Of a stretch of 64,000 nucleotides of DNA, positions 3,956-53,912 are shown in pieces. A program made the position numbers and the translations under genes. Numbering within the stretch: position 1 is the first letter of the stretch; every line of letters begins with the position of its first letter. Source of the stretch: Terriglobus albidus (GTDB lineage: Bacteria; Acidobacteriota; Terriglobia; Terriglobales; Acidobacteriaceae); the NCBI RefSeq assembly GCF_008000815.1, contig NZ_CP042806.1, positions 2,046,001 to 2,110,000 on the forward strand, given 5' to 3'. The notes beneath the pieces were generated by a model. The model did not search any database. It was given only the letters and a program-made list of their open reading frames with translations, and was not told where the DNA came from.

Positions 3956-4711
3956 ATGAACAGACCGAAGAGGCCGGAAAACTTGCGGATATATCGCCCG
4001 GGTGTTTTGACTGAGAGCAGGGAGGAATTCCCCTCATGGAACCAGATCCGGGGAGGTTTTACCCCGTTGTCCACGATGGTGTCGTATCTCTGGTCAAGGC
4101 CCGTTCTGCTACTCATCCTGCTTGCCATCATTGTCTGTAACGCGCATACGCAAACAATTTATGGTGGCCTGACAGGCACCGTACTGGATCCGACTGGGAT
4201 CCCAATTCAGAATGCATCTGTGACCATTCGAAGTGTGGAGACCGGGGTCGTAATCTCAATCAGTACAAACGACCATGGCTTATACACAGCAAACACCCTA
4301 GTGCCCGGGGTCTATACGGTTTCCATCAATGTATCCGGGTTTAGTCCGGTACGTGTGACGGGGGTTGTTGTTGCCGTCAACGCGACCCGGCAACTGGATG
4401 AAACATTGTCACTTGCGTCGACTTCTGATCAGGTCGTCGTGACGGCGGCTTCTCCGGCACTACAGACCGAGCGAGCGGATGTCAGCTATGAGATCTCGAC
4501 GGAGATGATGGAGAACCTGCCGACTACCTCCACAACAGGCCGCAACTTTCAAAGCCTCTATCAGTTGGTTCCCGGAGCGACCCCTCCCGCCGAACAAAAT
4601 TCGGCCAGTGGCAATCCGCAACGTTCCCAGGCCACCAATGTCAACGGAACGCCGAATATTGCCAATAGCACCAAGATCGATGGCGCCATCAATACCTATC
4701 CGTGGGTGCCC
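3956..4711 (+). pseudogene. TonB-dependent receptor (Oar-like), 5' part before the IS insertion
   Basis: Start at 3956 is fixed by AAAGGAGTGAT directly upstream. Residues 44-62 form the signal/membrane segment (VLLLILLAIIVCNAHTQT). Then comes a carboxypeptidase-regulatory-like domain (GLTGTVLDPTGIPIQNASVTI, about 68-155) and the start of the plug (TSTTGRNFQSLYQLVPGA). True coding ends at about 4711 (YPWVP); the following in-frame residues to the stop at 4742-4744 come from the inserted element. The right half resumes in a compatible frame at 6087, so the intact receptor would have been about 1150 residues. The receptor would have been an outer-membrane importer for oligosaccharides, energised by TonB. 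The gene is probably inactive unless the element excises. Confidence 0.85.
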
Positions 4712-4714
4712 TTC

Positions 4715-4947
4715 GATAAGGAAGAAGACTGTGTCAAGGGGTAAAAAGAGCGTACGTCATTATTCGATGCGAGGGCACCGTTTGAGAGTCCAGAGGCAAG
4801 GGGTTAGAGGACCGGTGTCTTCTGGGGTAACTCAACGCTGCATCACATCTCTGTGGGGCCTAGCCCCACCAACCATCGATTCGACCGTATACAACAGGCC
4901 ATGATGCTTCTATGCGGACATCCAGCCTGTGCTGGATGCGAAAGCGC
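4715..4947 (-). ncRNA. Candidate bridge RNA region of the IS element
   Basis: Non-coding DNA downstream of the transposase stop, where IS1111-type elements encode their bridge RNA. In the minus-strand transcript it would start with a perfect 8-bp hairpin, CATCCAGC-loop-GCTGGATG (4919-4938). A perfect 7-bp hairpin GTGGGGC-CTA-GCCCCAC (4853-4869) follows. No protein-coding frame is convincing here. The exact RNA ends and the two guide loops cannot be assigned by eye; the assignment rests on element type and position. Confidence 0.45.
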
Positions 4948-6000
4948 TCACTCAACGTCACGACCATGGATGGCCAGGGGCACCCCCGAGCTGCTCTCGA
5001 TATGGGCGATCTCTGGATAGCGTTTGTTCAGCCTGAGCATCCAGTAGAGTCGCACTGCTAACCTCCTTGCTGCCGCCACCTTGGCCACTGCTTTCGGCTT
5101 GTGGTGGCAGCGAGCCTGATACTGCTTTCGAAATCCCTCATCCAGCCGGCAGGCCGTCTGTGCTGCTTCCACCAGCAACTGGCGCATGAACCGGTTACCC
5201 TGCTTGCTGATGGCTCCCAGTTTCCGCTTGCCGCCCGAGGTGTATTCGCTGGGGATCAGGCCCAGATAGCTGGCGACCTTCCCGCTGTACTCGAACCGGC
5301 TCACATCGCCGATCGTCAGTACGAAGGCCATCGCCGTGATCGGGCCGACTCCCGGCTGGCTCATCAACAGCTCCGCCTTCGCATCCTCCCTGGCCGCTTG
5401 TACGACTGCCTCATCCAGCTCCTTGACCTGCCGGTCCAGACCCTTCATCAGTTCCAACAGATCCTCCCGTCGACGAGCACTCCAGCCCTCCAGGGGAAGC
5501 TTTTCCAACTCAGCCCTCCCCCGAACGCTCCACAGCCGCGACTGCTTCTGTACGCCACGGTTCATCGCCAGGTGCTGCAGCCCGTTCTTCACCCGGGTCC
5601 GGATCTCCACCAGCTTGTGTCGGTGGATCAGCAGCTGACGAAGATCCCGCTGCTTGGCTGAAGGCGTCCACAACCGCGGAAACCGGTCCTCCACCAGCAG
5701 CTTCAGGATATGGTCCGCATCCCGGCGGTCCGTCTTCTGCTTCCGTACATAGCTGGCTCGGATCTTCGCCGCATCTCCGACCCACACCGTGTGACCCAGA
5801 CTGCTTAGAAGATCAATAAACCACTGCGCGTTGCCGCACGACTCGATCCCTACAAGCGCTCCTGGAGACAACGACCGGTAGAACCGCTCCGCCTCCCCAT
5901 CACCGTTGACTAGCTTCGCTTCCCGGTACTCGCCAGTCTCCTGATCTAAAAATGAAACCTGCTGCCACTGCGGATGGAAATCACAACCTACAATCTGCAT
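4948..6000 (-). CDS. IS110-family transposase (DEDD/serine recombinase)
   Basis: 350 residues, full length for the family. The N-terminal RuvC-like DEDD domain starts with GCDFHPQWQQVSF, followed by GIESCGNAQWFIDLL and KTDRRDADHILKLL, which carry acidic residues in the expected order. The C-terminal Tnp_20 domain has QPGVGPITAMAF and SKQGNRFMRQLLVEAA, the latter containing the presumed nucleophilic serine. The frame is intact, so the element may be active. In this family the enzyme acts with a bridge RNA made from the element's non-coding end, which pairs with donor and target DNA. Confidence 0.93.
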   Translation of the reverse strand: MQIVGCDFHPQWQQVSFLDQETGEYREAKLVNGDGEAERFYRSLSPGALVGIESCGNAQWFIDLLSSLGHTVWVGDAAKIRASYVRKQKTDRRDADHILKLLVEDRFPRLWTPSAKQRDLRQLLIHRHKLVEIRTRVKNGLQHLAMNRGVQKQSRLWSVRGRAELEKLPLEGWSARRREDLLELMKGLDRQVKELDEAVVQAAREDAKAELLMSQPGVGPITAMAFVLTIGDVSRFEYSGKVASYLGLIPSEYTSGGKRKLGAISKQGNRFMRQLLVEAAQTACRLDEGFRKQYQARCHHKPKAVAKVAAARRLAVRLYWMLRLNKRYPEIAHIESSSGVPLAIHGRDVE

Positions 6001-6086
6001 AAGAAGGCTTCTCCTGATCTTCCCGATAGGTCAGTCCTCTAACCCTTACCTATCTCGATCTTCGCTGAAGCCTTCTTCCTTATCCC

Positions 6087-8783
6087 ATCAATGTGATTGC
6101 GTACGTCCCATCGCAGGATGCCATCGCGTCCGTTAACTTCTCGACTAACTCCTTCACCGCAGAGCAGGGGCTTGCGGGTGGCGCCGCGATCAATGTCATC
6201 ATCAAAAGCGGAAGCAACAAACTTCACGGAACATTATTCGAGTACAACCAGAGCACACCATACAATGCAAAGACATGGAAGTATGCGGCAGCGACCGTAC
6301 CAAAAAACATGTTCAATGAATTCGGGGGATCGATCGGTGGGCCCATTCTCAAGAATAAGCTCTTCTTCTTTTTCGACATCGACCGCTTCACCCAGCGAAA
6401 GACTCTAAGCGGCTACTACAACATCCTCGATAAGAACAGCGCGCTAGCCAAGGGAGATTTCAGTGGGGTTTCTGCCACAATCTATAACCCAGCGACGGGA
6501 AATGCGGATGGATCGGGCAGAGCAGCATTTGCAAACAAACAGGTTCCGGTTTCCTCAGTAGCACAGAAGCTCATCGCCAGCTTGCCCTTGCCGAATGTGG
6601 CCAGCACATCCTCCATCACCAGCAACTACTTCGCGACGACAACCTATAGCTTTGATCGCTACCACCTCGACAGCAAAATCTCATATACGCCGAACCAGAA
6701 AATGTCCATGTTTGGGCGTTATTCGGAGTCTCCGGCCACGATCAACGACCCGCAGGCGCTTGGCGCAGCAGGCGGCCCAGCCGTTGATAATGGTCAACCG
6801 GGCTTGGCCCAAAGCCGCGTTCAAAATATCGGTCTTGGCCTGACCTATGCGGTTTCTTCCAGGCTGTTCTTTGATACGAATGCTGGCTACACGCGGCAGT
6901 TTATTCAGTACGCGCCTACGAATTTAGATTCGAACTATGGTTCCGATGTATTGGGCATTCCAGGGACAAACGGTTCGACGACGAACTATGGAGGGCAGCC
7001 GTTCTTCCAGTTCGTCAGCGGAAGCTTCACCTCGTTGGGGAACACGCAGCCTTCCAGCCCGGGCCAGTTCCGCGACAACCAATATTCCTACAATGCCAAC
7101 GGCACCCTTCTGCGCGGACGCCACACCTTTCGTGCAGGGGTGGAATATACGCATGCCGCGTTGAACCACTTCCAGACAGGTGGAACATACGGTCCACGTG
7201 GAGGCTTTGTCTTCTCCGGCGCAATCACTGCGCTCAAAGGTGGAGCTGCGCCTAACGCCTACACATCACTTGCCGACTTCATGCTCGGCTTGCCCCAGGC
7301 GTTTGGAAAAGCCACACAAATCCAGGATCCCAATGCCCTTCGCTTTTCCTCCTACGCGGCCTACATCCAGGACACATTTCAAGTCACACCGAGAATGGTC
7401 CTCACATACGGAATCCGTTATGAACGTTATCCTTTCGCTGGTCGCGATCACTCAGGTGCATACCGCTATGACCCCATGACGGGAAATGTTCTGATAGGCG
7501 GTAAGGGGGGTGTCCCACGGGACACAGGAGAGAAGATCGGGTGGGGAATGGTCGTGCCTCGTCTGGGCGTTACCTATCGGCTTGACGATAAAACGGTTGT
7601 GCGCAGTGGTTTCGGTATGACGGTTGACCCGGACAACTTCCGTTATCTCAGGGACTCCTATCCCGCTGTGATCCTTCAGTCTTACAACGGAGCATCGAGC
7701 TACAACGTGGCGGGATGTCTCAATTCTGGAAGCTATGCCCCCGTCGGTGGTTGTCAGACAGTAGGAATTCCTACAGCAACGCTTCCCGACCTGAGCCTTG
7801 GGACGTTGGCATTGCCGGCAAGCGTCAGCACAAATACTGTTCCGCAAAACTTCCGACGCGGGTATCTTTACACATACAATCTAGCGTTTGAACGTCAACT
7901 TCCGGCGTATCTGGTCGCAACAATTACCTATGTTGGAACGAAAGAGGTCCGTGCGACGTCGCCCGTGAATATCAATGCTGGAACTGTCGGAAACGGTCAG
8001 GCAGGCAGGCCGCAGAACATCGCTTTCGGAAAGACAGCCGACATTTTCGAAGAGGCTCCGTTCGGTTCTGTGAATTACAACGGTTTGCAAACGCAATTGC
8101 GAACGCAGCACTACAAAAGCGCCCAGGCGGGTGTCATTTACACGTGGTCGCACGCCTTCGATGTCTCGGACAACAGCACCTATGGAACAATCCTTTTTGC
8201 TGATCCTGCCTATTACCGGCGCAACTATGCGACATCGGGTTACGACAGGACGAATAATCTGCAGGTGTGGGGCGTTTTTCGCTCTCCCTTCGGAAAACAA
8301 GGCCGTTTCGTGCAACAAGGATTGGCAGGCATGGCGCTGGGTGGTTGGCAACTCAACACAACTCTCAGCAAAGTCAGCGGCACACCCTTAACGATCGCGG
8401 CTTCCACGACATCGCTCAACGCTCCAGGCAGTACACAAGTTGCCGACCAGATAAAGCCAACGGTCGCCATTTATGGCGCTCATAATACTGGCAACGTCTA
8501 CTTTGATACCTCAGCTTTCGCCGCAGTGACCGCAGTGCGGTACGGAACAAGCAGCCGCAACTCCATACGTGGTCCAGGCTACTTCACCTGGAACGCAGGG
8601 ATGTTCCGCTCTTTTTCCATCTGGCATGAGTCTACATTCCGCTTTGGTGTAGAAGCATTCGATGTGACGAACACGCCCGGCTTCAGCAGTCCCGGCGTAA
8701 ACATTTCGGGTTCCGGGTTCGGCCAGATTACAGGTGCCTTCAATAACCGGACGATGCGCATTAGCGGCAAGATAGCTTTTTAG
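6087..8783 (+). pseudogene. TonB-dependent receptor (Oar-like), 3' part after the IS insertion
   Basis: About 900 residues continuing the receptor begun at 3956. It opens with INVIAYVPSQDAIASVNF, the end of the plug, then AEQGLAGGAAINVIIKSGSNKLHG and the long beta-barrel. The barrel includes NMFNEFGGSIGGPILKNKLFFFF, typical of Oar-type receptors of Acidobacteria, and ends with RTMRISGKIAF. No other lesion is visible, so the only damage is the insertion. A GTG at 6093 could start translation, but a barrel lacking signal peptide and plug would not reach the outer membrane. Confidence 0.85.
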
Positions 8784-53820: not shown

Positions 53821-53893
53821 GCGATGCCTCCCGTGAGCAGTAAAGATGCTGTTGCCGCGAATGACATAGCGCCAAAGGCGCGTTCCATACCAG

Positions 53894-53912
53894 CCTGGGG
53901 CGTAGCCCCAGG
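53894..53912. repeat. Hairpin CCTGGGGC-GTA-GCCCCAGG in ilvB-lipoprotein gap
   Basis: A perfect 8-bp stem with a 3-nt loop, between two genes of the operon. A smaller hairpin GCGCC-AAA-GGCGC lies 20 bp away. It may be an mRNA-stabilising element or a copy of a dispersed repeat. The rest of the 252-bp gap (53821-54072) shows no gene. Confidence 0.5.

What the first reader, a model, noticed from the sequence alone, without database searches (positions are those of the whole stretch)
4712..6086. Intact IS1111-type element with a candidate bridge RNA
The transposase is intact, inverted repeats are subterminal, and a 235-bp non-coding end with two perfect hairpins follows it. This is the layout of RNA-guided IS110-family recombinases. 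The known insertion point in the receptor gene gives the target sequence directly.
Basis: partly seen in the sequence, partly recalled or inferred. Interest (0 to 1): 0.6.

Follow-up and report, generated by a model that had tools for sequence, protein, structure and literature searches.

The report
Intact RNA-guided IS1111 insertion sequence
This is an intact jumping gene that carries its own guide RNA telling it where to insert; comparison with dozens of relatives shows that its guide letters change together with the insertion sites, and that a second, unexplained pairing links the guide-RNA transcript to the start of the enzyme's own message.

Summary
The element is window 4713-6090 (1378 bp), one of 12 full copies in this genome. 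It has an intact DEDD/PF02371 transposase, 12-bp subterminal repeats with 7-bp and 3-bp extensions, and no target duplication. Removing it restores an 1149-aa receptor frame. The bridge (seek) RNA is real by comparative evidence. A covariance model finds it in 68 of 72 held-out relatives, and 27 of its 39 pairs show two-sided changes. Its core is 4839-5001 (-). Across 50 elements with distinct sites both guides covary with their own flanks (z 15.5 and 13.6; 0 of 20,000 permutations). The usual target is a REP-like repeat; the receptor site is a one-mismatch variant. Beyond the textbook layout, a second covarying inverted repeat (6034-6045 with 4801-4812) links the tnp 5'UTR hairpin to a hairpin 3' of the bridge RNA (z 11.2; 6.2 within clades). 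I saw it in one other family of the phylum, not in 8 of 10 plasmid IS110-family elements. Riboregulation of the transposase is my preferred but unproven reading.

The parts
4713..6090 (-). whole IS (1378 bp), LE at 6090, RE at 4713
   Evidence: ends shared by 12 genomic copies and relatives; flanks join in frame, 1149 aa, one terminal stop, and align without gap to uninterrupted paralogues
4948..6000 (-). DEDD transposase/recombinase, 350 aa
   Evidence: PF01548 47.2 bits, PF02371 94.2 bits; GLIPSEYTSGG motif; best fold match IS621 recombinase 8wt9, E 1.4e-13
6072..6083 (-). left subterminal inverted repeat, with 7-bp extension 6084-6090
   Evidence: read from sequence
4716..4727 (-). right subterminal inverted repeat, with 3-bp extension 4713-4715
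   Evidence: read from sequence
4839..5001 (-). bridge/seek RNA core (target loop + donor loop)
   Evidence: covariance model R1, 144.7 bits, E 9e-34 here; covariation
4977..4985 (-). T guide (right target guide) GGGTGCCCC, inside the tnp ORF
   Evidence: complementary to right flank; covaries over 50 elements, z 15.5
4955..4959 (-). B guide (left target guide) GACGT, inside the tnp ORF
   Evidence: matches left flank; positions -1 to -5 covary, -6 to -8 do not
4902..4906 (-). putative right donor guide CATCA, complementary to LE start TGATG
   Evidence: 33 of 37 scorable elements pair at the variable base
4873..4880 (-). putative left donor guide ATCGATGG, matches RE end / LE start ATCGA-TG
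   Evidence: 37 of 37 scorable elements match at the variable base
4801..4812 (-). IR2', in a hairpin 3' of the bridge RNA core
   Evidence: complementary to 6034-6045, covaries
6034..6045 (-). IR2, in the upper part of the tnp 5'UTR hairpin
6001..6077 (-). predicted long 5'UTR hairpin reaching to the ATG and burying the ribosome-binding site
   Evidence: -32.4 kcal/mol, z -6.2 here; mean z -5.1 over 57 elements, mononucleotide shuffles
4732..4737 (-). -35-like TTGACA of a promoter that would form when the ends join (17 bp, then GA|TGAT)
   Evidence: TTGACA at exactly 17 bp in 50 of 57 elements, GATGAT in 55 of 57
3956..8783 (+). interrupted outer-membrane receptor gene (3956-4712 + 6091-8783)
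   Evidence: PF13620 and PF25183/PF00593 on the two halves; joined frame intact

Best explanation
The element is an autonomous RNA-guided IS1111-type insertion sequence. Inferred from known relatives: the DEDD transposase cuts the element out as a circle; joining RE to LE creates a promoter (TTGACA-17-GATGAT) that transcribes tnp and the RNA behind it. Shown by covariation here: a two-loop bridge RNA begins in the 3' end of tnp; its target loop pairs 9 nt (GGGTGCCCC) with the right target strand and 5 nt (GACGT) with the left, and its donor loop matches the element ends (weaker evidence). The complex inserts the element without duplication into GGGTGCCCC|AT of a dispersed REP-like repeat; in the window it used a one-mismatch look-alike in a receptor gene. 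An additional conserved complementarity joins the tnp 5'UTR hairpin to a hairpin 3' of the bridge RNA. Its most likely role is control of transposase translation or RNA processing (inferred, not shown).
For: 12 full copies with the same ends. 10 of 12 are flanked by GGGGCACCC on the right; the window copy has AGGGCACCC. The target is a repeat with 77 exact sites in the genome against 1 for the reversed control. Guide-target covariation over 50 distinct-site elements: T guide 8.0 of 9 against 5.87 permuted, B guide 3.2 of 4 against 1.51; 0 of 20,000 permutations each. It holds within clusters of at least 70% tnp identity. Fold: 27 of 39 pairs with two-sided changes, 0 of 500 shuffles. The model finds 68 of 72 held-out relatives. 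Donor guides 37 of 37 and 33 of 37. Junction promoter geometry 50 of 57. IS621/ISCro4 are the best structural matches.
Against: No transcript, circle or transposition was measured. 6 of 50 elements match their right flank at 6 or fewer of 9 positions (L065, L082 and L109 look poorly matched by eye). 43 of 110 relative loci gave no usable pair of ends and were dropped. In 20 of 57 elements the donor-guide motifs were not both found by my search pattern, and the right donor guide base also pairs inside the RNA, so donor pairing is not cleanly separated from folding. Copy L005 has an aberrant right flank. The AlphaFold model is weak beyond residue 230.
Confidence: 0.93

Rival explanations
1. IR2 is not RNA regulation but a second pair of DNA sites at the two ends, bound by the transposase or paired by the bridge RNA as an extended donor contact.
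For: The subterminal repeats also vary while staying inverted copies. Mismatches in IR2 are not enriched for G-U (6 of 36 non-Watson-Crick cells), which fits DNA sites at least as well as RNA pairing. The stems flanking IR2 on the LE side are only weakly above shuffles (z 3.2).
Against: IR2 changes between elements whose transposases are 81-83% identical and whose subterminal repeats are alike, with matching changes on both sides (L072/L075, L064/L067), which a protein site would not predict. The two arms lie at unequal distances from the ends. 8 of 10 plasmid IS110-family elements show at most one such pair.
Confidence: 0.3
2. The conserved flanks reflect protein recognition of a REP-like repeat; the RNA fold is a mere regulator and does not guide.
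For: Most close relatives also sit in GGGGCACCC sites.
Against: Relatives with other targets (e.g. CGGAATGAC, CGCGTTACC, GAATACATT) carry the matching complement at the same RNA position. The T-guide effect remains without GGGCACC-type targets, z 13.0.
Confidence: 0.03
3. The element is a dead relic in a pseudogene and the RNA signal is inherited only.
For: The window copy interrupts a gene.
Against: 12 copies are 97-100% identical; their tnp frames are open and 98-100% identical in protein; the two hexamers of the predicted junction promoter and the guides are intact.
Confidence: 0.07

Closest known systems
ISPa11 and ISEc11 (IS1111 family with seekRNA; PMC11187229)
   Same: subterminal repeats with 7/3-bp extensions, RNA downstream of tnp, top-strand guide 5' of bottom-strand guide, no target duplication; ISPa11 also targets REP sequences
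   Different: here the RNA starts inside the tnp ORF and a second LE/NCR inverted repeat is present; I could not compare ISPa11 or ISEc11 sequence directly
IS621 / ISCro4 (IS110 group, bridge RNA; PMC11208160)
   Same: recombinase fold, target loop plus donor loop
   Different: IS621 carries its RNA in the left end upstream of the gene and lacks long subterminal repeats
ISPpu9 (PMC8450116)
   Same: sits in REP sequences; tnp 5'UTR hairpin thought to bury the RBS; small RNA pairing tunes tnp translation
   Different: in ISPpu9 the activator is an antisense RNA (Asr9) from the left end and the downstream Ssr9 pairs with Asr9; here the downstream RNA itself is complementary to the 5'UTR

Membership tests
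IS1111 group | DEDD transposase with PF02371 and GL-P----S(T)G motif | tested here: met
   D7, E53, D91, D94, S255, G256 invariant in the 8 aligned proteins; that these four are the catalytic DEDD is my assignment from position
IS1111 group | subterminal inverted repeats about 11-13 bp, 7-bp left and 3-bp right extension | tested here: met
   12 bp, TGATGGG / CGA
IS1111 group | longer non-coding region downstream of tnp | tested here: met
   235 bp downstream against 90 bp upstream
IS1111 group | insertion without target duplication at a specific site, one orientation | tested here: met
   joined frame intact; ungapped against paralogues; 10 of 12 copies with GGGGCACCC on the RE side, one mismatch in the window copy, one aberrant
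seekRNA / bridge RNA | top-strand match precedes bottom-strand match | tested here: met
   T guide 4977-4985 then B guide 4955-4959 on the minus strand; covariation
seekRNA / bridge RNA | donor-binding nucleotides matching the element ends | tested here: inconclusive
   37 of 37 and 33 of 37 agree but few states, shared ancestry, and intramolecular pairing of the right guide
seekRNA / bridge RNA | RNA of about 70-170 nt bound by the transposase | not testable with these tools
   needs RNA co-purification
IS1111 group | circular intermediate with active junction promoter | not testable with these tools
   promoter geometry conserved 50 of 57; no circle observed

The most novel reading that the evidence does not exclude
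The guide-RNA transcript is bifunctional: beyond guiding recombination, its 3' hairpin (IR2') pairs with the loop region of the tnp 5'UTR hairpin (IR2), in cis or in trans, and so sets how much recombinase is made or how the RNA is trimmed. This would couple guide supply to enzyme supply, and it is maintained by compensatory evolution in an acidobacterial lineage of IS1111 elements.
Probability: 0.35. Interest if true: 0.6.

Novelty: new variant of a known kind. Interest (0 to 1): 0.42.

Why it matters
IS1111/IS110 elements are one-protein, one-RNA DNA-insertion systems. This lineage gives about 50 natural guide-target pairs, which map the guide limits directly (9 nt right, 5 nt left) without an experiment. 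The guide sits in the recombinase gene itself, so retargeting also rewrites the protein's last residues. If the extra pairing is regulatory, it would show how such an element balances guide and enzyme.

Tried and rejected
Considered and rejected: that the target is what the receptor gene shows (it is a one-mismatch site; the paralogues carry Tyr at that codon, so the T is probably original); that the T guide could be GGTGCCCT at about +171 or the GTGGGGC hairpin (both match in some copies, but neither follows the targets in relatives); that IR2 is chance (permutation); that IR2 is general to the family (not seen in 8 of 10 plasmid IS110-family elements; of three other IS110 families in this genome, L026 shows no pair, L029 one, L032 one perfect and three weaker).

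Led nowhere or weak: Rfam has no model for this RNA at gathering threshold. The LE flanking stems are only mildly enriched. G-U counting did not favour RNA. R1 gave no significant match in 30 loci of other IS110 elements and target sites. Phylum scan: 11 of 297 genomes matched, with stricter filters that missed some own copies (9 of 13 own matches kept), so 11 is a lower bound. The tandem copy L005 is not explained. Literature searched for the extra repeat: and word searches inside PMC11187229 and PMC11208160. I saw nothing on it, but most subscription papers are not held.

Full report
WHAT IS THERE. The window lies in a 6.4-Mb single-contig genome; close relatives of the element are in Acidobacteria assemblies. 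The ORF 4948-6000 (-) is a 350-aa transposase with PF01548 and PF02371 and the motif GLIPSEYTSGG. Its predicted fold (mean pLDDT 67, poor beyond residue 230) matches best the IS621 and ISCro4 recombinases solved with bridge RNA (E 1.4e-13).

ENDS AND TARGET. The genome holds 12 full copies and one partial. All 12 begin TGATGGG-ATAAGGAAGAAG and end CTTCTTCCTTAT-CGA, which puts the window copy at 4713-6090. Joining its flanks gives one open frame of 1149 aa. At the joint..AINTYPWVPYVIAYVP.. lines up without gap with two uninterrupted receptor genes..AVNAYPWLPYLVAYLP.. (L218 in this genome, L203 in another of the genus). So insertion was exact, without duplication. Ten of 12 copies have GGGGCACCC on the RE side, the window copy AGGGCACCC, and one (L005) abuts a remnant of another copy. 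The common site is GGGTGCCCC|AT at the edge of a dispersed palindromic repeat: 77 exact GGGTGCCCCAT sites against 1 for the pattern read backwards, often followed by a hairpin and GTGGG in the 30 of 77 sites I read.

THE RNA. I fetched relatives by protein: 85 of 398 family genomes had a match at 1e-60, with 60 further stretches and 21 loci from named assemblies. Of 110 relative loci, 67 gave both ends; 6 of these I treated as second records of a locus already held. With the window copy, and without 5 cut or unanchored ones, 57 elements were used, 50 with distinct flanks. The aligned region downstream of, and overlapping, the tnp end folds into a target loop (closed by CGAGAGC/GCTCTCG-type stems that change to GCAGGA/TCCTGC or GCAAGGC/GCCTTGC), a hairpin, and a multi-branched donor loop. 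On 45 sequences 97.9% of cells pair against 83.4% in shuffles, 27 of 39 pairs have two-sided changes, and sliding the partners destroys the signal; this alignment was fitted to the model and so leans towards it. Model R1, built on 23 sequences, finds 68 of 72 held-out relatives, the four misses being L085, L087, L131 and L160, and all 12 own copies plus the partial one. It does not match other IS110 elements of this genome or the ten plasmid elements beyond chance.

THE GUIDES. In the window RNA, GGGTGCCCC (4977-4985) is complementary to the right target strand except at the base next to the insertion point, and GACGT (4955-4959) fits the left flank CACAT with three standard pairs, one G-T wobble and one mismatch (read). 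Over 50 elements the T guide scores 8.0 of 9 against 5.87 permuted. The B guide effect is present at positions -1 to -5 and absent at -6 to -8. Both remain when permuting only within clusters of at least 70% tnp identity (T z 7.0, B z 8.7). Elements with quite different sites carry quite different guides at the same place. In 44 of 51 elements with a clear T guide the tnp frame runs on through it, so guide and protein tail share letters. Donor loop: AT[C/A/T]GATGG matches the RE end in 37 of 37, and [C/A/G]ATCA pairs with the LE start in 33 of 37 scorable elements (20 of 57 not scorable). This is weaker evidence, because the latter also pairs within the RNA.

EXPRESSION. When the ends join, RE TTGACA and LE TGAT form TTGACA-17-GATGAT; TTGACA lies at exactly 17 bp in 50 of 57 and GATGAT occurs in 55 of 57. 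Junction promoters of this family are published (PMC11187229; I read the abstract, the first three of nine parts, the 'Many IS' and Discussion sections, and passages). Of PMC11208160 I saw passages only.

THE EXTRA REPEAT (IR2). A 12-bp perfect inverted repeat joins 6034-6045 (LE) to 4801-4812 (3' of the RNA core). In 57 elements the best LE-NCR 12-mer scores 10.8 of 12 against 9.5 when LE and NCR are swapped between elements (0 of 5000), and z is 6.2 within clusters of at least 70% identity. 38 of 57 reach 11 or 12. Paired changes occur between elements with 81-83% identical transposases. The NCR arm sits in a hairpin (stems z 5.2 against shuffles), the LE arm less clearly (z 3.2). The whole LE folds as a long hairpin up to the ATG (mean z -5.1, mononucleotide shuffles). 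One element from another family of the phylum (L199) has both repeats at 12 of 12. ISPpu9 offers a precedent for 5'UTR folding and small-RNA control (PMC8450116; abstract and passages seen). Against an RNA role: only 6 of 36 mismatched cells are G-U.

JUDGEMENT. The finding is a sound new member of the IS1111/bridge-RNA kind, with two features I did not find described: guides inside the tnp frame, and IR2. I call it a variant for IR2. If IR2 proved irrelevant, 'new member' would be the right label.

Noticed in passing
L005/L013 (genome 833778-835414): A 263-bp right-end remnant of one copy abuts the right end of a full copy; its breakpoint falls exactly after the old copy's T-guide DNA (GGGTGCCCC|TGGCC), as if the guide DNA itself had been used as a site.
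   Followed up: partly
L034-L063 and 47 further sites listed: A REP-like family GGGTGCCCCAT + hairpin + GTGGG is dispersed through the genome and serves as landing site of this IS.
   Followed up: partly
L026-L033: The same genome holds other IS110-family elements (about 30% identical; 10 places, in groups of 3, 3 and 4 with the same score), not matched by model R1.
   Followed up: partly
window 53868-53912: Acido-Lenti-1 RNA (RF01687), 38.2 bits against gathering 37.
   Followed up: no
L070, L073, L074, L078: Some relatives carry an insertion of roughly 65-80 nt in the hairpin between target and donor loops, with a shared sequence.
   Followed up: no
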